DNA from: a virus
IMG/VR virus record: IMGVR_UViG_3300001847_000392
Span: 1-35,836 of that record
DNA: 35,836 nt
Strand: one strand, 5' to 3'
Shown here: positions 2,730-33,460 of the stretch, piece after piece
How positions within the stretch are numbered: position 1 is the first letter of the stretch
How the letters are laid out: every line of letters begins with the position of its first letter
The notes under the pieces: model-generated
What the model saw: the letters and a program-made list of their open reading frames with translations, nothing else
The model's database searches: none
Told to the model about the DNA's origin: nothing
Made by a program: the position numbers and the translations under genes

Positions 2730-3151
2730 TTGATTTTTCCTCGCAGATAATCAATACATTCATTCCATTTTTCATTACAATCACTATAAGAAATAAAACG
2801 ATTGTCGTTCAACCATACACTAATCTTATCTGCAAGTTCTTCGCAGGTTGGTTGGTCATCATCGTCATTCCATTCCTTAATAATCTCATAAAGTGTTTGA
2901 GGTATTGGTGTTTCATTCACCTCAACATCTTTTGGTTGTGCTGCTTCCCAACCTGCTTGAAAACCTGCCCACCTTGCGTCTTCAATAAAAGATGTATCAC
3001 TTATGTTAGTATTAGGATACTCTCCCCACCACTCCTTATATGCTTCTTCTACTGGCATCTTCACTCGGTCAAGTTTTTCAAGAAACTCAACCTTTGCTTG
3101 AAGCACTTTGATTTTAGATTTCAGTTTTTCAATTTCATTATTAAAGGTCAT
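2726..3151 (-). CDS. Hypothetical protein with N-terminal coiled coil
   Basis: A 141-residue protein, the longest in the ladder. Residues 1-30 form a clear heptad-like coiled coil (E-I-E-K-L-K-S-K-I-K-V-L-Q-A-K-V-E-F-L-E), suggesting self-association. The middle contains W-W-G-E-Y-P and a helix G-F-Q-A-G-W-E-A-A, a pattern common in small phage proteins, followed by an acidic linker. The start lies inside the end of the preceding gene (11-base overlap). No enzymatic motif is visible. Confidence 0.85.
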   Translation of the reverse strand: MTFNNEIEKLKSKIKVLQAKVEFLEKLDRVKMPVEEAYKEWWGEYPNTNISDTSFIEDARWAGFQAGWEAAQPKDVEVNETPIPQTLYEIIKEWNDDDDQPTCEELADKISVWLNDNRFISYSDCNEKWNECIDYLRGKIK

Positions 3152-3413
3152 TTGGGTTCTCCATTTTCACATAAACAACATCATTGTAATCATCATTTCC
3201 TTCATCGTCTGGACCCTCAAAAAACCAATCACCAAATCTTGGATTTTTTCTATGCCAAGAAGAAAAAGAACTTTCCACTTCCCAAATCTTATCTTTAATT
3301 TGTTGATAGGTTCCCTCTAAAATATAGAGTTTATTTCTTGCTGTGGTTGTAGCAGTGTCTTGCCCACATACACCAGTAGCACCATCATCTTTGTAAGTAA
3401 TGTAGAGTTTCAT
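3141..3413 (-). CDS. Small hypothetical protein
   Basis: A 90-residue protein starting M-K-L-Y-I-T-Y-K-D-D-G, an alpha/beta type with an acidic C-terminal region (E-G-P-D-D-E-G-N-D-D). No known domain is recognised. A strong GAGG site five bases before the ATG overlaps the stop codon of the gene at 3420-3677, so re-initiation is likely. The end overlaps the start of the next gene by 11 bases. Confidence 0.83.
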   Translation of the reverse strand: MKLYITYKDDGATGVCGQDTATTTARNKLYILEGTYQQIKDKIWEVESSFSSWHRKNPRFGDWFFEGPDDEGNDDYNDVVYVKMENPNDL

Positions 3414-3419
3414 AATACC

Positions 3420-3677
3420 TCAATTCAAATAACTTTCAAGAACAGACAGGACTTTCAATTCTCCTTCGGGAGTTGTCAGTAGATTTGCGGGGACTTTACC
3501 ATCCAGTTGTTTGTTTGGTGTTTGAACCCAGTGTCGCATAAGTTTCATATCACTTCCTGTTTGTCGTGCAAGAACACTATAAATGCGGATAAGTGTTAGG
3601 TCTGTGTTCCATTCTGTGAGACCCAAAAGTTCGCCTGCCTTTCCTGCAGATTTTTGTAGTAGGTGTTGGTCAGTCAT
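3420..3677 (-). CDS. MbcA/ParS/Xre antitoxin toxin-binding domain protein (DUF2384-like), solitary
   Basis: An 85-residue protein whose residues about 26-84 match what I know of the toxin-binding domain of MbcA/ParS/Xre antitoxins. There is a helix (L-I-R-I-Y-S-V-L-A), then H-W-V-Q-T-P-N-K-Q-L-D-G-K-V-P with the family's W-x-x-T-P-N-x-x-L-x-G-x-x-P, and L-L-T-T-P-E-G. The N-terminal DNA-binding part of such antitoxins is largely missing; only a G-K-A-G-E-L-L-G-L-T remnant precedes the domain. In the family this domain blocks RES-type toxins. No RES toxin is visible nearby, so it may neutralise a host toxin or have a new partner. A good ribosome site (GGGAGA) precedes the ATG. Confidence 0.78.
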   Translation of the reverse strand: MTDQHLLQKSAGKAGELLGLTEWNTDLTLIRIYSVLARQTGSDMKLMRHWVQTPNKQLDGKVPANLLTTPEGELKVLSVLESYLN

Positions 3678-3832
3678 TCTCCCTCTCCATATTCAGTGGT
3701 AATACTATCAATCACATAATCCCCATGAGCAATCAGAAGATTTGCAGTGGCGATTGCAAGTTGCATGGTCTTGTGTTTCTGGTAACGCTTTTCCAGATCG
3801 TTTTTGTAGTAATAAGAGATTAGGTAGGTCAT
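3674..3832 (-). CDS. Very small hypothetical protein
   Basis: A 52-residue reading frame below the usual length cut-off, beginning M-T-Y-L-I-S-Y-Y-Y-K and ending Y-G-E-G-E. The ATG overlaps the stop of the gene at 3829-4116 by ATGA, and its own stop overlaps the next ATG, so it exactly fills the space between two genes. The central part (M-Q-L-A-I-A-T-A-N-L-L-I-A-H-G) is a hydrophobic helix; the ends are polar. Exact fit and coupling are the main evidence. Function is unknown. Confidence 0.8.
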   Translation of the reverse strand: MTYLISYYYKNDLEKRYQKHKTMQLAIATANLLIAHGDYVIDSITTEYGEGE

Positions 3833-4116
3833 CGGACTTGTCCTTGATAAGAAAAATTGATTTGTTCTTTATTCACACCACGAATTCTGGCAAGTTCCTC
3901 AATAGATTTCTGTCTCCGTGGTGGCAGTTTCTCAAATTCTACCCACTTGACTTCGGCACCTTCAGGAAGAATGTGATTGGCATTATCGTAGATTTTATCT
4001 ACTGTTTGATAAACAAACTCAGAGACTTTGTAGGCAATCATAAGAGGGATCATCACACCTGCACGAAGAATGATCAGATGCGGAAGGTATTTGTTGTAGG
4101 GGTAGAGTTTAGTCAT
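3829..4116 (-). CDS. Hypothetical protein with hydrophobic segment, first gene of the ladder operon
   Basis: A 95-residue protein. Residues 11-29 (L-P-H-L-I-I-L-R-A-G-V-M-I-P-L-M-I-A-Y) are hydrophobic and could be a weak membrane or buried helix. The rest is charged and ends in a basic stretch (L-P-P-R-R-Q-K-S). It is the first gene after the promoter at 4139-4144. The leader of about 25 bases shows no clear ribosome site, unlike the downstream genes. Function is unknown. Confidence 0.83.
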   Translation of the reverse strand: MTKLYPYNKYLPHLIILRAGVMIPLMIAYKVSEFVYQTVDKIYDNANHILPEGAEVKWVEFEKLPPRRQKSIEELARIRGVNKEQINFSYQGQVR

Positions 4117-4138: not shown

Positions 4139-4144
4139 ATTATA
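4139..4144 (-). promoter_or_regulatory. Early-type -10 box directly after a terminator
   Basis: A perfect TATAAT lies four bases beyond the T-run of the terminator at 4149-4171 and about 25 bases before the ATG at 4116. The expected -35 position falls in the hairpin and matches the consensus poorly. It is predicted to drive the ladder operon that runs down to the left edge. Confidence 0.65.
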
Positions 4145-4148
4145 AGAC

Positions 4149-4171
4149 AAAAAAGGCGCCATGCAGCGCCT
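4149..4171 (-). terminator. Rho-independent terminator
   Basis: Minus-strand stem AGGCGC/GCGCCT with a short TGCATG loop, followed by six T residues. It lies just after the gene at 4186-4422 and the AACTGTCACA motif, and ends the operon that starts at 5321. Confidence 0.85.
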
Positions 4172-4173
4172 CC

Positions 4174-4183
4174 TGTGACAGTT
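4174..4183 (-). repeat. AACTGKCACA motif, variant copy (AACTGTCACA)
   Basis: One base differs from the common AACTGGCACA, and in the wider context GACACTTGAAGAACTGTCAC it makes a 22-base inverted repeat (4175-4196) with GTGACA/TGTCAC ends. It sits between the stop at 4186 and the terminator. Confidence 0.7.
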
Positions 4184-5342: not shown

Positions 5343-5371
5343 ATTATAGGAAAAAGAGGGCTTGATGTCAA
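5343..5371 (-). promoter_or_regulatory. Consensus sigma70-type promoter overlapping a terminator
   Basis: Exact TTGACA (5366-5371), a 17-base spacer and exact TATAAT (5343-5348). The -35 box covers the loop and part of the stem of the terminator hairpin at 5356-5377, and the spacer contains its T-run. It should drive the genes at 5321, 4612 and 4422. Confidence 0.85.
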
Positions 5372-5377
5372 GCCCTC
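5351..5377 (-). terminator. Rho-independent terminator with -35 box in its loop
   Basis: Minus-strand stem GAGGGCTTGA/TCAAGCCCTC (10 bp) with a two-base centre, followed by five T residues. It begins immediately at the stop of the phosphatase gene (5376). Its 3' half doubles as part of the next promoter. Confidence 0.85.
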
Positions 5378-5843
5378 AGAAGTCGCCTTTGCCTTGGCCT
5401 ACATCAAAGACCCAGATGCCACGGTTGACCCACATATCAACGACACGCTTGCGATCATCGAAGACAAACAGAATGTTGTGTGTCTTTTCGATTTCATCAG
5501 CGATTTCGCCCTTGACAATGGAATCATCACGGTTATCCTTGAACTTCCGCATGTAAAGAGCAGAATACTCAAACCGATGATTTTGCAACCACTGTTCAGT
5601 CTTTTCACGGTAGTCATCGGAACGACCAGACACCAGAATAATGTCAGTCGGTTCTGTAGTCATGTGCTTGACTGCATGAAGTGCTGCATACACAAAGGCA
5701 ACAGCAGTATTCGGTTGATCATTGACCATACCCTCATTCCATGCCTTCCAGTTCTTCGGTTTCGTTGCTACAAAGTGACGACGATGGGTAACATCGCAGA
5801 TGGTGCCATCCAGATCGAAAATGATTGCGTTGCGCTTGTCCAT
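5376..5843 (-). CDS. HAD-family polynucleotide 3'-phosphatase (PseT phosphatase-domain-like)
   Basis: A 155-residue HAD phosphatase. Motif I is F-D-L-D-G-T with D10 as nucleophile and D12 as general acid. Motif II is V-S-G-R (71-74). N-R-D-D-S-I-V-K (104-111) supplies the Lys, and F-D-D-R (128-131) is motif III. This order matches the 3'-phosphatase domain of T4 polynucleotide kinase/phosphatase, which removes 2',3'-cyclic or 3' phosphates from broken RNA before sealing. In T4 it is fused to the kinase; here the kinase is a separate gene at 7255. It is alone between two promoter/terminator elements, so it can be expressed independently. A pyrimidine-nucleotidase role is the main alternative. 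Confidence 0.82.
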   Translation of the reverse strand: MDKRNAIIFDLDGTICDVTHRRHFVATKPKNWKAWNEGMVNDQPNTAVAFVYAALHAVKHMTTEPTDIILVSGRSDDYREKTEQWLQNHRFEYSALYMRKFKDNRDDSIVKGEIADEIEKTHNILFVFDDRKRVVDMWVNRGIWVFDVGQGKGDF

Positions 5844-5864
5844 GATGTGTTTGTGTATGTAATG

Positions 5865-5870
5865 ATTATA
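5865..5870 (-). promoter_or_regulatory. Early-type -10 box upstream of the phosphatase gene
   Basis: Perfect TATAAT 22 bases before the ATG at 5843, about 30 bases past an AACTGGCACA motif. I see no good -35 hexamer and no convincing hairpin in this copy, so it is the most degraded composite element. The leader has no clear ribosome site. Confidence 0.6.
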
Positions 5871-5900
5871 GGGGATGAATGGGCAAAAGTGGGAGACTGC

Positions 5901-5910
5901 TGTGCCAGTT
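5901..5910 (-). repeat. AACTGGCACA motif copy
   Basis: Exact AACTGGCACA in the context TTAAACTGGCACA; the preceding TAA is the stop of the Toprim gene. It lies about 30 bases before the next -10 box. Confidence 0.75.
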
Positions 5911-6443
5911 TAAGAATTGGCGTACTTGGAGAGAAGATACCTTACATAATCATCAGGTGCTTCTCCAAGGTCTTTACCCTCAGGCACAACTTCCACATAA
6001 TGCCCAAACTTTGCAAGTTTTTTACCTGCATCGTCATTGTCACATACAGCAACAACAGGACGATGCAGCATATCTAACCAGTTGCGATAATCCTTGGGTG
6101 GATTATTCGCCATTGTAGACAATGCAGATGCACCAACCTCAGTCATTCTTGCAGCATCAAAAATCCCTTCAGTCAAGTAGATTACTCCGCTTGACTGATA
6201 GAGACTTTCTAATCCCCAAACCACAATGGTTGGTTGATTCTTGTTGCGATAGGTGTAATACTTTCCTTCCAGTTTGGAGTTAAAGATTTTCTTATCTCCA
6301 TTTGGATTGTATTGTTGATACCCTACCAGTTGCCCAGATGGATTCCAACAATAGAAAGTAGCGATATTCAGTTGTTCATCCAAGACAGGACGGTGTAAAT
6401 CTAAGTTAAGGTGTCTTTCTCTTAGATGTTGTTTGAGGTTCAT
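5910..6443 (-). CDS. Toprim-domain protein
   Basis: A 177-residue protein with a Toprim fold. The catalytic Glu is in Y-L-T-E-G-I-F-D-A (E92), and the acidic pair is V-C-D-N-D-D-A-G (D135, D137). Residues 25-75 (N-P-S-G-Q-L-V-G-Y-Q-Q-Y) look like the short domain that precedes Toprim in DnaG-type and phage primases. There is no zinc finger or RNA-polymerase-like region beyond that, so it is a minimal Toprim protein, not a full primase. Toprim enzymes include primases, topoisomerases, OLD nucleases and RNase M5. Its coupling (ATGA) to the tRNA nucleotidyltransferase and its place among RNA-repair genes make an RNA-processing role possible, but a primase-related role is equally open. Confidence 0.8.
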   Translation of the reverse strand: MNLKQHLRERHLNLDLHRPVLDEQLNIATFYCWNPSGQLVGYQQYNPNGDKKIFNSKLEGKYYTYRNKNQPTIVVWGLESLYQSSGVIYLTEGIFDAARMTEVGASALSTMANNPPKDYRNWLDMLHRPVVAVCDNDDAGKKLAKFGHYVEVVPEGKDLGEAPDDYVRYLLSKYANS

Positions 6444-7171
6444 TGCTTCAATGTTGGCATGAGACGCAGACCATCACGAAAGATGGCATTCTTCATGTTG
6501 CGACGAAGATCGCTCAGAGTTTCCATCGTAGCGACAGTGTTTGCAAGGAACATCTTGTCAAGTTCCTCACGGATACGCTCAACCGAAACCTTGCTCAGCA
6601 TTTCAGCAGCAAAGTCACTGTTGACTGCATCCCAAGTGTTCGCTTCAATGTCAAACCCTTTGGTGATATGAAACCTCAGTGCTCGCATCACTCGCAAACC
6701 ATCTTCTGCGATCCGATCAGTTGGATTGCCAACAAAACGGAGAAGATTGCTATTGAGATCGTCTTGACCATTGAAGGGATCCACCAGATCACCATTCAGG
6801 ATCGCCATTGCGTTGACGGTGAAATCCCGTCGCTGCAGGTCGTCCAGCAGAGTGCCAGGCAGCACGAAATCAGGGCGCCTGCCGTCGCTGCTAGGGCCGT
6901 CCTTGCGGGCCAGCACAAAGTCTGCGACATTGGTTCGCCGCTTCAGTGGGTGCCAGTCAGGAACCTGTGCTCGCACCGTGAAGAACTGTGGAGTCTCCAG
7001 AAAGACCTTAAATCCGTCTACCTTCAAACAGTTTACTAGAGTATCAAAGGCATCATTTGCATTTTGAAAACGATTTGGATTGTTGGGGACTGCAACAAAG
7101 TCAACATCCTTGGAGTTCAGTCCGAGCATAGAATCCCGAACTGCACCGCCGACTTCTGCGAATTGAAACAT
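6440..7171 (-). CDS. Short class II CCA-type tRNA nucleotidyltransferase
   Basis: A 243-residue protein with the poly(A) polymerase/CCA-adding head and neck. V-G-G-A-V-R-D occupies 7-13, the metal-binding K-D-V-D-F gives D22 and D24, R-R-D-F-T-V-N-A is at 114-121, E-D-G-L-R-V-M-R-A-L-R-F at 156-167 and E-R-I-R-E-E-L at 198-204. Bacterial enzymes have about 400 residues, so the body and tail are missing and the neck is short. The predicted job is adding or repairing the 3' CCA of tRNA. The open frame extends 28 codons upstream through the hairpin element; I chose the ATG at 7171 (GGTGAGAAGC before it), directly ahead of the first motif. The stretch around 6820-6960 is clearly GC-richer than its surroundings. 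Confidence 0.86.
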   Translation of the reverse strand: MFQFAEVGGAVRDSMLGLNSKDVDFVAVPNNPNRFQNANDAFDTLVNCLKVDGFKVFLETPQFFTVRAQVPDWHPLKRRTNVADFVLARKDGPSSDGRRPDFVLPGTLLDDLQRRDFTVNAMAILNGDLVDPFNGQDDLNSNLLRFVGNPTDRIAEDGLRVMRALRFHITKGFDIEANTWDAVNSDFAAEMLSKVSVERIREELDKMFLANTVATMETLSDLRRNMKNAIFRDGLRLMPTLKQ

Positions 7172-7195
7172 GCTTCTCACCAATTCGATGTATCT

Positions 7196-7201
7196 AATAT
7201 A
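7196..7201 (-). promoter_or_regulatory. Early-type -10 box upstream of the CCA-enzyme gene
   Basis: TATATT with a possible -35 GTCACA 18 bases upstream, which sits in the 3' part of the hairpin loop of 7212-7249. It lies 24 bases before the ATG at 7171. Confidence 0.6.
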
Positions 7202-7208
7202 AGGGATG

Positions 7209-7249
7209 AAAGGTCGGAGTGTGACTGGTGATGTGCCAGTGCTCCGACC
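7209..7249 (-). terminator. Terminator-like hairpin
   Basis: Outer stem GGTCGGAG/CTCCGACC (8 bp) closed around an inner ACTGG/CCAGT pair, followed by only three T residues. It begins a few bases after the stop of the kinase gene and would be a moderate terminator. Confidence 0.65.
7233..7242 (-). repeat. AACTGGCACA motif, variant copy (CACTGGCACA)
   Basis: Here the motif lies inside the hairpin instead of before it, and its ACTGG forms the inner stem with a CCAGT downstream. This is the one copy whose position differs from the others. Confidence 0.6.
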
Positions 7250-7254
7250 GTCCA

Positions 7255-7728
7255 TCAGTTGCCTCGCTCGATCACCTCAAAGTCTTCAGTGTTGTTAGGA
7301 ATTACAAAGGAATGATACATGGTCTTCAACACACCTTCAGGAATGCACTTTCCTTCACGATGCTTGTTGCGTTCCAGTGCTTCCTTCAATGTGATCTCAA
7401 AATACACTGCTTTCTTGCGGTACATATCAGCAGGAACTTTAGAAGTCTTTTGTTTGCGTGTCTTTGGAGTCAGATTTGTTTGATCAATGATGATGTGTCG
7501 TTGTTCAAAGATCGCAAACTTCAGACGTTCCCACATATAGTCGGTTGCTTCTGAAATAGTCTTCTTGAAGACATCATCATAGGTCTTACCTTGCTCATCC
7601 GCAACCCTTTGAATGTAGTTGTCCGTAGACAGAACAACCGCATCAGCATAGCGAGGTTGAGTAATGAGATTGTTGACATAGGTGGACTTCCCACAGGTAG
7701 GGATTCCACAAAGTAAAATTAGTTCCAT
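7255..7728 (-). CDS. 5'-polynucleotide kinase (PseT kinase-domain-like)
   Basis: A 157-residue P-loop kinase. G-I-P-T-C-G-K-S-T at 8-16 is the Walker A loop, S-T-D-N-Y at 34-38 carries the conserved Asp, and I-D-Q-T-N-L-T at 81-87 matches the D-x-T-N motif of the T4 polynucleotide kinase family. K/R residues around 90-106 would contact the acceptor. It transfers a phosphate from ATP to a 5'-OH of RNA or DNA, making ends fit for ligation. In T4 this domain is fused to the 3'-phosphatase; here the two are separate genes about 1.4 kb apart. The ATG at 7728 overlaps the end of the ligase gene by ten bases; a GTG further up is rejected. Confidence 0.85.
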   Translation of the reverse strand: MELILLCGIPTCGKSTYVNNLITQPRYADAVVLSTDNYIQRVADEQGKTYDDVFKKTISEATDYMWERLKFAIFEQRHIIIDQTNLTPKTRKQKTSKVPADMYRKKAVYFEITLKEALERNKHREGKCIPEGVLKTMYHSFVIPNNTEDFEVIERGN

Positions 7729-8903
7729 TTTAAGTTCCCCCACAACCAGCGATTTTCGTTAACTTTAGTTTGACTGGAGATAGACTTGCAAATCTTGTCT
7801 ACAATCAGATCCTTGACCTTATGACCATTCCGAAGTTTGAACATGAATGGTTGATAGTGTTTAGGAACAGTAGGAACTGCAACAGTTGCAAATTTCTTCT
7901 GATCCTCCACATTTTTGATTGAAGAATATGCGTCATAAATGTCTGACCCAACATCTTCAACTGCCATCCAGAACGCAGTTTGGAAAGCATGAAGACGGTG
8001 TGCATCATCTTCAGTCAGAAGAGGTACAATGTCATCCACAGAGTCATTCAGGATTACCTCAATGACATTCTTTTCATGATTGATTGCGTCCTTGGAACGA
8101 TGGCGGAAGACATAATCTGAAGATTTTACTTTACACATATGCCCATTATCAAAACGCAGAACCACACCTTCAGAACCTTCCCATTCACGGATTTGCTCCA
8201 CAAACAATTCAATGTTCTGAATTGCCAGACCATCAATTGCCTTGACTATAGGAATGTCCCAAGCATTTGCATACTCAGTCATCACCTTATAGTTAACATA
8301 GGCACCAGTATCAAGATACCGAATACCAGTCAGAATCAATTGATCTTCAGGATAATCAACCACAATACGATTCTTACGAGAGCACCATTCAAAAAGAGGT
8401 GTGGTGCCTTCCTGAATGCACTTTTCAATAAAGGTCTTGTAGTTTTTCTTGTCTGAAATGAACACCTCTGCGTTCATTGCAACATCAGTGATACCTGCTT
8501 TCGTAGCAAGACGGAAACCCTCTTTGGTAGGAATCGGACGAATCATGCTACCATCCAGTTTCTCCAGAACCACATGAGGTTCATAAAGATTCACTCGTTT
8601 GGTCAGAACTTCTTGCTTCTCACCAATGTTGAAGAACTTGTGATAAGGGCGGGAAATCAGTTCACCATCGCTGTTGAAGATCAGACCACGGCATTCACGA
8701 AGAATTGCGTGCTCCCGTTCCCGTGCTTCACGCATCTTGGCAGACCCACCAGAAACTTTCACAGAAGGGAAAGTATCCTCAAAGGCAACCATGTAGTTGA
8801 CTACAATGTACCAGTCTTTATTGAAGACACGGAATTCTTCCTTACCTTCAATGTGAGGCAGCACATCATCAATGGTTTCAATGATCGGGAATTTGTAGTC
8901 CAT
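7719..8903 (-). CDS. rnlA: T4 RnlA-type RNA ligase 1 (gp63-like)
   Basis: A 394-residue nucleotidyltransferase-type ligase, close in length to T4 Rnl1 (374). The adenylation site is E-K-L-D-G-S with K115. The upstream C-R-G-L-I-F (71-76) and K-F-F-N (89-92) are hallmark Rnl1 sequences, L-F-E-W-C-S-R-K-N-R-I-V (170-181) is motif IIIa, E-G-V-V-L-R (245-250) is motif IV and C-K-V-K (257-260) is motif V. The C-terminal 120 residues would be the Rnl1-specific domain. Rnl1 seals tRNAs cut in the anticodon loop after end healing. The kinase gene overlaps its 3' end, so the two are co-expressed from the promoter at 8925. Confidence 0.9.
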   Translation of the reverse strand: MDYKFPIIETIDDVLPHIEGKEEFRVFNKDWYIVVNYMVAFEDTFPSVKVSGGSAKMREAREREHAILRECRGLIFNSDGELISRPYHKFFNIGEKQEVLTKRVNLYEPHVVLEKLDGSMIRPIPTKEGFRLATKAGITDVAMNAEVFISDKKNYKTFIEKCIQEGTTPLFEWCSRKNRIVVDYPEDQLILTGIRYLDTGAYVNYKVMTEYANAWDIPIVKAIDGLAIQNIELFVEQIREWEGSEGVVLRFDNGHMCKVKSSDYVFRHRSKDAINHEKNVIEVILNDSVDDIVPLLTEDDAHRLHAFQTAFWMAVEDVGSDIYDAYSSIKNVEDQKKFATVAVPTVPKHYQPFMFKLRNGHKVKDLIVDKICKSISSQTKVNENRWLWGNLKWN

Positions 8904-8924
8904 GTCTGTTTCAGTTCTCCGAAT

Positions 8925-8953
8925 AATATAAGACCTCTTGACGATAAAATCAA
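8925..8953 (-). promoter_or_regulatory. Promoter upstream of RNA ligase 1, -35 in hairpin
   Basis: TTGATT (8948-8953), spacer of 17, TATATT (8925-8930). The -35 lies in the arm and loop of the hairpin at 8932-8959. The ATG follows 22 bases after the -10. Confidence 0.7.
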
Positions 8954-8959
8954 GGAGTC
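8932..8959 (-). terminator. Weak terminator-like hairpin
   Basis: Stem GACTCCTTGA/TCAAGAGGTC with one G-T pair and one mismatch, and no T-run beyond TCTTAT. It follows the stop of the second ligase and the AACTGGCACA motif. The shape is conserved, but termination strength is doubtful. Confidence 0.5.
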
Positions 8960-8960
8960 G

Positions 8961-8970
8961 TGTGCCAGTT
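8961..8970 (-). repeat. AACTGGCACA motif copy
   Basis: Exact motif in the context TGATAAACTGGCACA, directly after tandem stop codons (TGA TAA) of the ligase gene at 8973-10022. Confidence 0.75.
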
Positions 8971-8972
8971 TA

Positions 8973-10022
8973 TCAACCGTCGTTCTTGAGCAACCACTTG
9001 TTAGAGATTGCCTTGAATGTAAAGTCACTGTCCATAGACTTGAACACAATTCCTTCACGCTGATTTGCATGAAGAGACGGACCATCAGCACTCAAGAGAA
9101 GATCATTCATAGTGTTAATGTTCAGATCCTTGAGTTTGATGAGGGTATCCAAAATGGGAACATGCATGACAGATTCTCCACTCAAATCTTTGAGTTGAAA
9201 TCGAATATGTTGACGATCATAAGCATTCAGATATCGTCTAGAATCAATGTCGTAGATGTCAAACATATAGAACTTTTGACCTTTGATCTTCTCTTGATTC
9301 TTCTGAATTCCTTCACCAATCACCTCACCTTGAATAGCAAGATTACGACCAAGTTTCTCCAGACCTTCAACAAGTCCCTGAGAACGAGCACACTTCCAAA
9401 GTGTGTTACCTTCAGTCTCTTTCAGTTCCCAGTTACGACCACACACACCGACCTTACCCTCCTTATAGTAAATGGTGCAGGAAGTACCATCCAGTTTGAC
9501 AGTAACTTCATAGGTCTCATCATAATGCTCAGTGAAGATTTCATCATGAAGATTCTGGCAGCGTTCCTGATCTGTCTTCGGAATAAAGGAAGGAAACGGA
9601 CCTTCAACTTCCCCAGCAAGTTGTGCAGGAATTGGTGCTTCCCATTTCTGAATACCTAGTTGAATAGTTAAATCATGACCAACAGGATTACCTGCAAGAG
9701 GCCAGAAACCTTTTTCATCCAAAATAGTTTTAGGAAGAAGAAGTCCCTGAGATACTTGACCACGAAGTTTCATAGTGCGGAGGCGTTCACCTTTCACACC
9801 ATTATACTCACGGGGTTCATGTCCCTTAGAAAGAAAAGGTGCAAGTTCATGAGGAACCCAACTATCAATCTCAAGATAGATGGCAAGATCACCAACAGAG
9901 TATTCACCTTTCTTTACAACGACATTCCACCCATGATCGACTTCTGCACACTCAATGGCGTCAGCATCAGGAATGGGGTGAATGTCAGTGATTTCAGCAA
10001 TGCGTGCAAGTTTGCGTGTCAT
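8973..10022 (-). CDS. RNA ligase of the DRB0094 (Rnl5) type
   Basis: A 349-residue second RNA ligase, unrelated in detail to the Rnl1 gene next door. Residues 1-150 form an OB-like N-terminal module (A-R-I-A-E-I-T-D-I-H-P-I-P-D-A-D) as in the Deinococcus DraRnl/DRB0094 family. The ligase core follows: V-K-L-D-G-T-S with K176, I-Q-G-E-V-I-G-E-G-I-Q (230-240), E-G-I-V-F-K-S (323-329) and F-K-A-I-S-N-K (336-342). Members seal 3'-OH/5'-phosphate breaks, and DraRnl prefers RNA nicks in duplexes. It is alone between two promoter elements, so it can be tuned separately. The ATG has no evident ribosome site. Confidence 0.88.
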   Translation of the reverse strand: MTRKLARIAEITDIHPIPDADAIECAEVDHGWNVVVKKGEYSVGDLAIYLEIDSWVPHELAPFLSKGHEPREYNGVKGERLRTMKLRGQVSQGLLLPKTILDEKGFWPLAGNPVGHDLTIQLGIQKWEAPIPAQLAGEVEGPFPSFIPKTDQERCQNLHDEIFTEHYDETYEVTVKLDGTSCTIYYKEGKVGVCGRNWELKETEGNTLWKCARSQGLVEGLEKLGRNLAIQGEVIGEGIQKNQEKIKGQKFYMFDIYDIDSRRYLNAYDRQHIRFQLKDLSGESVMHVPILDTLIKLKDLNINTMNDLLLSADGPSLHANQREGIVFKSMDSDFTFKAISNKWLLKNDG

Positions 10023-20674: not shown

Positions 20675-20860
20675 TCATGATGCTTCTTCGTGATCAGTGT
20701 GTATACGAACTAATTCATCAATTTCAGTTTTATATATTGCATAAGGAAGAAGCATTACATTTCCACAATTACTTTGAATTATGAATGTTTCTCCTTTTTC
20801 AACTTTTTCAAAATATTCATCAAAGTTATTTTGAAGTTCTTCAACTGTGAGAATTTTCAT
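20675..20860 (-). CDS. Phd/YefM-like antitoxin-type protein
   Basis: A 61-residue protein starting M-K-I-L-T-V-E-E-L-Q-N-N-F-D-E-Y-F-E. It matches the DNA-binding half of Phd/YefM proteins: a first strand, a helix with 'N-N-F', then V-E-K-G-E-T-F-I-I-Q-S and V-M-L-L-P-Y. The C-terminal tail, which in true antitoxins covers the toxin, is short (about 20 residues). No Doc or RelE toxin is adjacent. In a phage such a protein might repress its own operon or neutralise a host toxin. The start lies within the end of the preceding gene by 20 bases. Confidence 0.7.
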   Translation of the reverse strand: MKILTVEELQNNFDEYFEKVEKGETFIIQSNCGNVMLLPYAIYKTEIDELVRIHTDHEEAS

Positions 20861-33034: not shown

Positions 33035-33460
33035 ATGTTTTTTGACACAAGAAAAATAAGTCATTTATTAAATATTGCTGACATAGGTATTATTGAAATT
33101 AATTTAGATAATGATGATAAGTGGAACTGTTATGATGATAAAATAATTAACCATAAAAGAAATACAACTGCAATTTATTGGAAAAATTTAAGTAATGAAG
33201 AAAGAATTGATAGATTAAAAAATCATGGCATGTCTGGTAAAAAACACTCTAAAAAAACCAGAGATAAAATGAGTAAATCTTCTGTCGGAAAAAACCGACC
33301 ATCTTTGCATAAAAGTGGGAAACTAATTAAAGATGATAAAATTGTAGAATTTTCTTGCTTAAGTCATTTTTGTAAGGAATATAAATTAAGTGTTGGGCAT
33401 GTTTCCGAACTATTACAAGGTAAAAGAAAATCTGTAAAGGGGTGGAAAAATGTCATATAA
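33035..33460 (+). CDS. Homing-endonuclease-like protein with NUMOD3, catalytic domain missing
   Basis: A 141-residue basic protein. Residues about 65-92 carry the NUMOD3 DNA-binding motif (H-G-M-S-G-K-K-H-S, K-T-R-D-K-M-S-K-S), and the C-terminus (F-C-K-E-Y-K-L-S-V-G-H-V-S-E-L-L, G-K-R-K-S-V-K-G-W) matches the NUMOD1/IENR1 helix-turn-helix of phage homing endonucleases. No HNH or GIY-YIG residues are visible in the N-terminal 60 residues, so the nuclease is either lost or very divergent. It lies between the late promoter and gp4 and overlaps the gp4 start by 11 bases, which is typical of an inserted free-standing element. The ATG has only a weak ribosome site. Confidence 0.75.
   Translation: MFFDTRKISHLLNIADIGIIEINLDNDDKWNCYDDKIINHKRNTTAIYWKNLSNEERIDRLKNHGMSGKKHSKKTRDKMSKSSVGKNRPSLHKSGKLIKDDKIVEFSCLSHFCKEYKLSVGHVSELLQGKRKSVKGWKNVI

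What the first reader, a model, noticed from the sequence alone, without database searches (positions are those of the whole stretch)
3420..3677. Solitary MbcA/ParS/Xre toxin-binding domain in a phage early operon
The W-x-x-T-P-N-x-x-L-x-G-x-x-P signature is clear, while the DNA-binding half is reduced and no RES toxin is nearby. A stand-alone toxin-binding domain could neutralise a host RES-type (NAD-degrading) toxin, giving an anti-defence role.
Basis: partly seen in the sequence, partly recalled or inferred. Interest (0 to 1): 0.58.

Follow-up and report, generated by a model that had tools for sequence, protein, structure and literature searches.

The report
Cyanophage antitoxin stripped of DNA-binding part
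A virus of photosynthetic bacteria carries a shortened copy of the bacteria's own antitoxin, which probably lets it switch off a toxin that would otherwise destroy an essential molecule (NAD) during infection; this is a prediction from sequence and modelled structure, not yet tested.

Summary
Window 3420-3677 (minus strand) encodes an 85-residue protein whose residues 40-81 match PF09722 at 31.5 bits (cut-off 24.5). It belongs to a phage family in 29 other IMG/VR contigs. Its AlphaFold model matches the antitoxin NatR (PDB 8qnl) over 84 of 85 residues (rmsd 1.4, Z 13.0). A profile alignment to host antitoxins is colinear except for one 25-residue gap, where the DNA-binding helices lie; helix 1 and the toxin-binding domain remain. 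No RES toxin gene was found in any of the 30 viral records. The family profile, run over 201 genomes of a picocyanobacterial family, found 26 genes; 25 lie 148-217 bp from a RES gene. Elsewhere in the phylum it found none except in the search's centre genome. The closest phage relatives carry psbA. Best explanation: a phage antitoxin mimic that blocks NatT-type NAD-degrading RES toxins. Against it: two interface arginines, conserved in NatR and almost all host antitoxins, are lost in the window protein and most of the family. No RES system is yet known to defend against phage, and nothing was tested in cells. Phage antitoxin mimics are known; one for RES toxins I found in no paper searched.

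The parts
3420..3677 (-). 85-aa solitary NatR-type toxin-binding protein (HTH-less antitoxin mimic, predicted)
   Evidence: PF09722 31.5 bits over cut-off 24.5; AlphaFold model pLDDT 95.6; 8qnl_A Z 13.0, rmsd 1.4, 84 residues
3624..3671 (-). helix 1 (residues 3-18), equivalent to alpha1 of NatR and of host antitoxins
   Evidence: model helix 3-18; aligned to host alpha1
3606..3620 (-). junction (about residues 20-24) where host antitoxins have 25 more residues, the HTH region
   Evidence: single 25-residue gap in an otherwise colinear profile-profile alignment; the naming of the helices is inference
3423..3602 (-). toxin-binding domain (residues 26-85); PF09722 proper spans 3435-3560
   Evidence: C-terminal helix 70-82 corresponds to NatR alpha7, which enters the toxin's active site in the NatR-NatT crystal (PMC11535050, section read)
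3674..3832 (-). upstream neighbour in the same run, 52 aa, overlaps the start by ATGA; no family match
3829..4116 (-). first gene of the short run that contains the antitoxin-like gene, 95 aa, no confident family
3141..3413 (-). downstream neighbour, 90 aa, no confident family; not a RES toxin
4151..4174 (-). terminator-like hairpin between the upstream genes and this run; a TATAAT follows it at about 4139-4144
   Evidence: scan; TATAAT read by eye; function is inference
5343..5371 (-). perfect sigma-70 consensus (12 of 12), nested in a terminator-like site 5377-5356; candidate early promoter of the gene run
   Evidence: the number of promoter-like sites in the region is not above shuffles (23 against 18.9)
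20675..20860 (-). second lone antitoxin-like gene, Phd/YefM type, 61 aa; supports an anti-toxin theme in this phage
   Evidence: PF02604 26.4 bits, below cut-off 29.8; phrog_375 Phd-like antitoxin E 8.4e-9

Best explanation
It is a phage-encoded antitoxin mimic of the NatR kind. SHOWN by computation: the protein is a NatR-type toxin-binding domain with helix 1 kept and the 25-residue HTH region missing; it belongs to a conserved phage family; plausible hosts carry antitoxins of the same kind beside RES toxins of the NatT type; the phage records carry no detectable RES toxin. INFERRED: during infection the phage protein binds the host RES toxin as NatR does (helices 1, 4 and 7 against the toxin, the C-terminal helix plugging the NAD pocket), so NAD is not degraded when host antitoxin synthesis stops or host antitoxin decays. 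Without the HTH it cannot bind operator DNA, so it would act only as an inhibitor and not as a repressor of the host toxin operon.
For: PF09722 match over cut-off. AlphaFold models of two divergent members (window, L024; pLDDT 95.6 and 95.0) match NatR best, Z 13.0-13.3, rmsd 1.3-1.5 over 84-85 residues. For the window model the first seven entries are all RES antitoxins and the next entry has Z 3.8; for L024 the first five are RES antitoxins and the next has Z 3.1. Phage-family and host-antitoxin profiles align with E 4.7e-23 and one 25-residue gap. The family profile finds 26 genes in 23 of 201 genomes of the SynAce01 family, 25 of them 148-217 bp from a RES gene, and in 292 genomes across the phylum only the centre genome. 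It scores these antitoxins at 52-66 bits (L218, the one without RES, 39), the classical Xre of Okeania at 17 and those near the 153-aa RES type at 10-11. A host toxin (SynAce01, L166) is a NatT homologue, E 2.7e-40, aligned through the NatT Flap. RES is absent from 30 of 30 viral records, and no NatT-type RES or full-length antitoxin was confirmed in IMG/VR. The nearest relatives carry psbA (4 of 30 records), and the window's helicase is cyanophage-like. The gene is under purifying selection. Precedent: AdfB of ICP1 is a functional antitoxin mimic (PMC11481870, passages read).
Against: NatR Arg70 and Arg119, which coordinate a phosphate at the NatT interface (PMC11535050), are kept in 22 of 22 and 21 of 22 host antitoxins. 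In the 21 phage proteins Arg70 is kept in 0 (one has Lys) and Arg119 in 3; the window has Ser and Leu (numbering offset of 7 worked out by hand). Plasmid proteins of this domain without an annotated RES within 3 kb exist, so the domain alone does not prove a RES partner; one of them (Marinobacter) is closer to the window over the C-domain, 46%, than any host antitoxin, 35%. No RES system has a shown anti-phage role (PMC11535050). The GndRX RES system is reported not to behave canonically (PMC12457610, passages read). The host of this phage is not known, and the window has no psbA.
Confidence: 0.6

Rival explanations
1. Anti-addiction rather than anti-defence: the protein neutralises RES toxins of plasmids, genomic islands or competing mobile elements in the host, so that loss of those elements during infection does not starve the cell of NAD. 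Same molecular activity, different ecological target.
For: RES/antitoxin pairs are patchy in the host family (29 of 201 genomes), as expected of mobile loci; orphan antitoxins of other families are discussed as anti-addiction modules (PMC7354431, passages read).
Against: In a lytic T4-like phage any toxin released after host shut-off counts as defence, so the two readings nearly merge; RES genes here were not mapped to plasmids or islands.
Confidence: 0.12
2. It binds RES complexes but as a regulator or dominant-negative partner: it docks on host antitoxin or toxin without plugging the active site, changing oligomer state or derepressing the host operon.
For: Loss of Arg70 in all and Arg119 in most members, including the window, alters the interface through which NatT is switched (PMC11535050); without the HTH it cannot join a DNA-bound complex.
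Against: The C-terminal helix is kept in full in the models of both subgroups, and one subgroup ends in the host-like YLDAM.
Confidence: 0.13
3. A toxin-binding domain reused for something else: an orphan small protein with the same fold that binds another phage or host protein, like the plasmid copies next to umuDC.
For: RES-less plasmid copies beside umuDC or relaxase genes; in four contigs the domain is fused to a 95-aa unknown domain; interface arginines lost.
Against: The profile relation is to the antitoxins of one RES subtype in the matching host family; every solved structure matched with Z of 6 or more is a RES-complex antitoxin.
Confidence: 0.13
4. Decaying remnant of a toxin-antitoxin pair picked up from a host, without present function.
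For: No toxin left in the record; the HTH is gone.
Against: Found in 29 other contigs, 26-60% identical to the window protein or identical to it, in open frames; dN/dS below 1 in every pair computed; 11 invariant positions.
Confidence: 0.02

Closest known systems
NatR antitoxin of the NatR-NatT RES system (PDB 8qnl, 8qnq)
   Same: Fold over the whole phage protein (84 of 85 residues, rmsd 1.4); M-R-H-[FW]-x-x-T-P-N core; C-terminal helix that in NatR enters the toxin pocket
   Different: Phage protein lacks the 25-residue HTH region, has no cognate toxin beside it, and lost Arg70 and Arg119
NatR-type antitoxins beside RES genes in Synechococcus/Cyanobium genomes (this work, L196-L217, L219-L221)
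   Same: Found by the phage family's own profile at E 1e-12 to 1e-16; same helix 1 and C-domain; mostly an [LM]RHW core
   Different: Mostly 120-140 aa with HTH; 148-217 bp from a RES gene; the best host for each phage protein is 34-43% identical over the C-domain
Phage antitoxin mimics: T4 Dmd (against RnlA/LsoA), AdfB of ICP1 (against DarT)
   Same: Phage protein that acts as antitoxin to a host toxin not encoded by the phage
   Different: Other toxins and other folds (Dmd from PMC7354431 passages and recall; AdfB from PMC11481870 passages; the difference of folds is recalled); AdfB was tested in cells, this one was not
Lone antitoxins YefM, TacA and MazE of cyanophage S-CREM1 (PMC9964418)
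   Same: Lytic T4-like cyanophage with toxin-less antitoxin genes, proposed to counter host toxins; the window also has a Phd/YefM-like gene
   Different: None is of the RES antitoxin kind; the family profile finds nothing in S-CREM1
Nip of phage phi3T, inhibitor of the NADase SpbK (PMC11984713)
   Same: Phage protein that binds and blocks a NAD-degrading toxin
   Different: Target is a TIR-domain defence protein, not a RES toxin; abstract and outline only were read

Membership tests
PF09722 Xre/MbcA/ParS C-terminal toxin-binding domain | profile score over the curated cut-off (24.5 bits) | tested here: met
   window 31.5 bits; of five other phage members scored, two reach 24.8 and three fall below (21.4, 20.7, 13.6)
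PF09722 Xre/MbcA/ParS C-terminal toxin-binding domain | fold of solved members | tested here: met
   model matches 8qnl, 6fkg, 8gug, 6gw6, 6d0h, 9r35 with Z 13.0 to 6.6; next unrelated entry Z 3.8
Type II RES/Xre antitoxin (NatR, MbcA, Xre) | N-terminal helix-turn-helix DNA-binding domain | tested here: not met
   25-residue gap against host antitoxins; VIA-align aligns 84 model residues to chain residues 9-120
Type II RES/Xre antitoxin (NatR, MbcA, Xre) | RES toxin gene next door | tested here: not met
   0 of 30 viral records match PF08808 at E <= 10; records may be fragments
Type II RES/Xre antitoxin (NatR, MbcA, Xre) | NCBIfam NF049845 cut-off (90 bits) | tested here: not met
   29.4 bits, residues 27-81 only
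Type II RES/Xre antitoxin (NatR, MbcA, Xre) | NatR Arg70 and Arg119 of the toxin interface | tested here: not met
   window Ser and Leu; hosts Arg in 22 of 22 and 21 of 22
Type II RES/Xre antitoxin (NatR, MbcA, Xre) | binds and inhibits a RES toxin | not testable with these tools
   needs co-expression or NADase assay
Phage antitoxin mimic (functional class) | encoded by a phage that lacks the toxin | tested here: met
   baseplate and tail genes in the window; no RES in the records at hand, which may be fragments
Phage antitoxin mimic (functional class) | matching toxin-antitoxin pair in plausible hosts | tested here: met
   25 of 26 profile matches beside RES in 201 genomes of the SynAce01 family; the host of this very phage is unknown
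Phage antitoxin mimic (functional class) | neutralises the toxin and aids infection | not testable with these tools

The most novel reading that the evidence does not exclude
NatT-type RES toxins of picocyanobacteria are an anti-phage NAD-depletion defence, and T4-like cyanophages carry a dedicated inhibitor made by deleting the DNA-binding helices of a host-type antitoxin. Because it has lost the two arginines of the phosphate pocket through which NatT may be switched on, it would be an inhibitor that the host's activating signal cannot dislodge.
Probability: 0.22. Interest if true: 0.8.

Novelty: new variant of a known kind. Interest (0 to 1): 0.62.

Why it matters
RES toxins are widespread NAD-degrading toxins whose purpose is unresolved; the NatT paper says none has been implicated in immunity (PMC11535050, passages read). 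A phage family that keeps only the toxin-binding part of the matching antitoxin is indirect but specific evidence that phages meet these toxins. It names the toxin subtype (NatT-like), the host family and a ready test pair, so the question becomes directly testable.

Tried and rejected
Chance match: rejected, since the profile score, the fold, 20 further distinct phage sequences (A3) and purifying selection agree.

RES toxin elsewhere on the phage: searched in 30 records, including three of about 258 kb, none found. Records may be fragments, so a toxin elsewhere in the window's own genome is not excluded.

Isolated phages: tblastn of the window protein, of two relatives and of one full-length host antitoxin against 50,697 phage records gave no match. 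The A3 profile over eight whole cyanophage genomes gave 0 of 8 (that search had no positive control of its own, though the same model matches elsewhere). BFVD holds short uncultured-phage proteins annotated with this domain at Foldseek E about 1, so such annotations exist; I could not read them.

Tree: 86 columns and 48 rows did not resolve whether the phage proteins are one clade, nor reject it (p-AU 0.387), so the number of HTH losses and the donor are open. The window protein is not clearly nearest to cyanobacterial antitoxins; a Marinobacter plasmid protein is as near or nearer.

Other libraries: PADLOC gave nothing for this protein; PHROGs gave only a weak unnamed family for the window protein (phrog_38101, E 0.017) and nothing for five other members. 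Literature: searches listed no paper on a phage-encoded RES antitoxin that I recognised from titles, abstracts or the passages read; the library lacks most subscription papers and all bioRxiv preprints.

A complex model of the phage protein with a host toxin was not possible with the single-chain predictor. Of the 30 stretches, one (L017) was unrelated and was dropped; left out of A3 besides were four copies of the fused form, two cut by locus ends, two identical to L021 and one identical to the window. In the R70/R119 count the host rows are 22 of the 26 places (L203, L210, L213 and L221 were not put in the alignment); Arg70 and Arg119 were counted on that automatic alignment.

Full report
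WHAT IS THERE. The window is a 35,836-base virus record with T4-like tail and baseplate genes. Its UvsW-like helicase is most like those of Synechococcus and Prochlorococcus myoviruses (best 53.5% identity to S-SCSM1; 459 records matched, mostly cyanophages). The gene in question, 3420-3677 minus, encodes 85 residues, starts inside the stop of its upstream neighbour and lies in a run of small minus-strand genes. PF09722, the toxin-binding domain of Xre/MbcA/ParS antitoxins, matches residues 40-81 at 31.5 bits against a cut-off of 24.5. The NCBIfam RES/Xre antitoxin model matches only residues 27-81, far under its cut-off (29.4 of 90). The closest solved sequence is 8qnl_A (E 5e-4), which is NatR of Pseudomonas aeruginosa (named in PMC12204516).

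A PHAGE FAMILY. A first scan of IMG/VR gave only a near-twin contig (99.97% over 11,677 bases). Alignment and pattern scans then gave more: 29 of the 30 stretches encode members, typically 85-97 residues, with the core G-x-D-x-x-L-M-x-H-W-x-x-x-x-N-x-x-L-x-x-x-P. In four contigs the domain is fused behind a 95-residue unknown domain. Twenty distinct unfused, uncut members plus the window give alignment A3, with 11 invariant positions. All pairs with dS under 2.5 among the 17 sequences compared have dN/dS below 1 (window against L021: 0.32). Of 30 viral records, four (L021, L026, L036, L040; up to 258 kb), which hold the nearest distinct relative of the window protein, carry psbA, the mark of a cyanophage. 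None of the 30 has a RES gene, and neither NatT-type RES nor full-length NatR-type antitoxins were confirmed in IMG/VR.

WHAT IT LOOKS LIKE. The AlphaFold model made with A3 has pLDDT 95.6, with helices 3-18, 26-40, 44-52, 63-66 and 70-82. VIA-align places 84 of 85 residues on NatR residues 9-120 with rmsd 1.4 and Z 13.0. The first seven entries (8qnq, 8qnl, 6fkg, 8gug, 6gw6, 6d0h, 9r35) are all antitoxins solved with RES-fold toxins; the next has Z 3.8. A second model, of the largest other subgroup (L024), behaves the same way (pLDDT 95.0, Z 13.3 and 13.1 to NatR, next unrelated entry 3.1). Foldseek alone gives 8qnq_A and 8qnl_A at E 3-4e-4.

WHAT IS MISSING. Phage and host-antitoxin profiles align with probability 99.5 and E 4.7e-23 along almost the whole phage protein, with one gap of 25 residues after helix 1 (rows). 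In NatR this stretch corresponds to the two helices between alpha1 and alpha4, the HTH (inference). Helices alpha1, alpha4 and alpha7 carry the contacts to the NatT Flap, and alpha7 extends into the NAD pocket (PMC11535050, section 9 read). The phage protein therefore keeps the helices that touch the toxin and drops those that touch DNA.

THE HOST SIDE. PF08808 (RES) is present in 6 of 35 named cyanobacteria: 5 of 11 Synechococcus, Cyanobium and related picocyanobacteria, 0 of 9 Prochlorococcus, 1 of 15 others (grouping by record titles). In 201 genomes of the family of Synechococcus sp. SynAce01 (Cyanobiaceae; name recalled) it is in 29. The phage profile A3, run with the same centre, rank and number, finds 26 places in 23 of 201 genomes; 25 of 26 lie 148-217 bp from a RES match. 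The exception, L218, scores lowest and has no RES match. In 292 genomes drawn across the phylum only the centre genome matches. The profile distinguishes RES subtypes: NatR-type host antitoxins score 52-66 bits, L218 39, the classical Xre of Okeania 17, those near the 153-aa RES type 10-11. A host toxin, SynAce01 L166, is a NatT homologue (E 2.7e-40) aligned through the Flap. Several host antitoxins share with one phage subgroup the C-terminal YLDAM.

RESULTS AGAINST. NatR Arg70 and Arg119 coordinate a phosphate at the NatT interface. With an offset of 7 between printed chain and paper numbering (worked out by hand, consistent with the residue range), Arg70 is kept in 22 of 22 host antitoxins aligned and 0 of 21 phage proteins (one Lys), and Arg119 in 21 of 22 and 3 of 21. 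This can mean a loosened or different interface, a different partner, or escape from the switch that activates the toxin. Plasmid proteins of this domain with no RES annotated within 3 kb are found beside umuDC, relaxase or other genes; the four aligned also lack one or both of these arginines. The Marinobacter plasmid protein is closer to the window over the C-domain than any host antitoxin (46% against 35%). The tree is unresolved. GndRX, a RES-Xre pair with a predicted flap, is reported as non-canonical. The window's host is unknown.

HOW IT MOST LIKELY WORKS. Shown: domain, modelled fold, absence of the HTH region, absence of a phage toxin in the records, matching toxin-antitoxin pairs in a plausible host family. 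Inferred: in infection the phage protein occupies the antitoxin site of NatT-type toxins and keeps the NAD pocket closed when the host can no longer supply antitoxin. The setting fits: the same strand carries an RNA-repair set (phosphatase 5376-5843, kinase-like 7255-7743, CCA-adding-like enzyme 6440-7255, two RNA ligases 7719-10022), a known type of answer to RNA-cutting defences (recalled; jumbo-phage passages), and a second lone antitoxin-like gene of the Phd/YefM type lies at 20675-20860. A perfect sigma-70 promoter-like site at 5371-5343 would suit early expression, though a terminator-like site intervenes.

WHAT IS KNOWN. Phage antitoxin mimics exist (AdfB; Dmd), cyanophage S-CREM1 carries lone YefM, TacA and MazE genes with the same proposed role, and phage inhibitors of NADase defences exist (Nip, abstract). 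None of the papers of which I read passages describes a phage RES antitoxin, and the NatT paper states that no RES system has been implicated in immunity. It works like an antitoxin mimic (inferred); it is a member of PF09722; it is not a complete NatR-type antitoxin, because the HTH, the cognate toxin and the two arginines were tested and not met.

Noticed in passing
window 20675-20860 (-): Lone Phd/YefM-type antitoxin-like gene (PF02604 26.4 bits, under cut-off; phrog_375 E 8e-9); its two neighbours are a DUF7294 protein and an unknown, no toxin seen.
   Followed up: partly
window 5376-10022 (-): RNA-repair cluster: PNKP-type phosphatase, kinase-like ATPase, CCA-adding-like enzyme, T4 Rnl1-like ligase and a second RNA ligase.
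   Followed up: no
window 5377-5343 (-): Terminator-like hairpin overlapping a perfect sigma-70 promoter consensus, so the end of one unit and the start of the next share the same bases.
   Followed up: no
L018, L029, L034, L037 (180-aa ORF): The toxin-binding domain fused behind a 95-aa unknown domain; a homologue of that domain stands alone about 3.2 kb downstream of the antitoxin-like gene in L021 and L036 (32.9% over 82 aa).
   Followed up: partly
L005, L007 (Acinetobacter plasmids): About 120-aa Xre/MbcA/ParS-domain proteins upstream of umuD and a Y-family polymerase, without an annotated RES toxin within 3 kb.
   Followed up: no
L024 12228-12932 and relatives: Metallophosphoesterase-like gene in the same direction upstream of the antitoxin-like gene in seven loci (six contigs; L010 and L024 are one), abutting it in five of the loci.
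   Followed up: no
window 33035-33460 (+): ORF with a weak NUMOD3 motif next to the TnsA-like endonuclease-domain gene, possibly a homing endonuclease.
   Followed up: no
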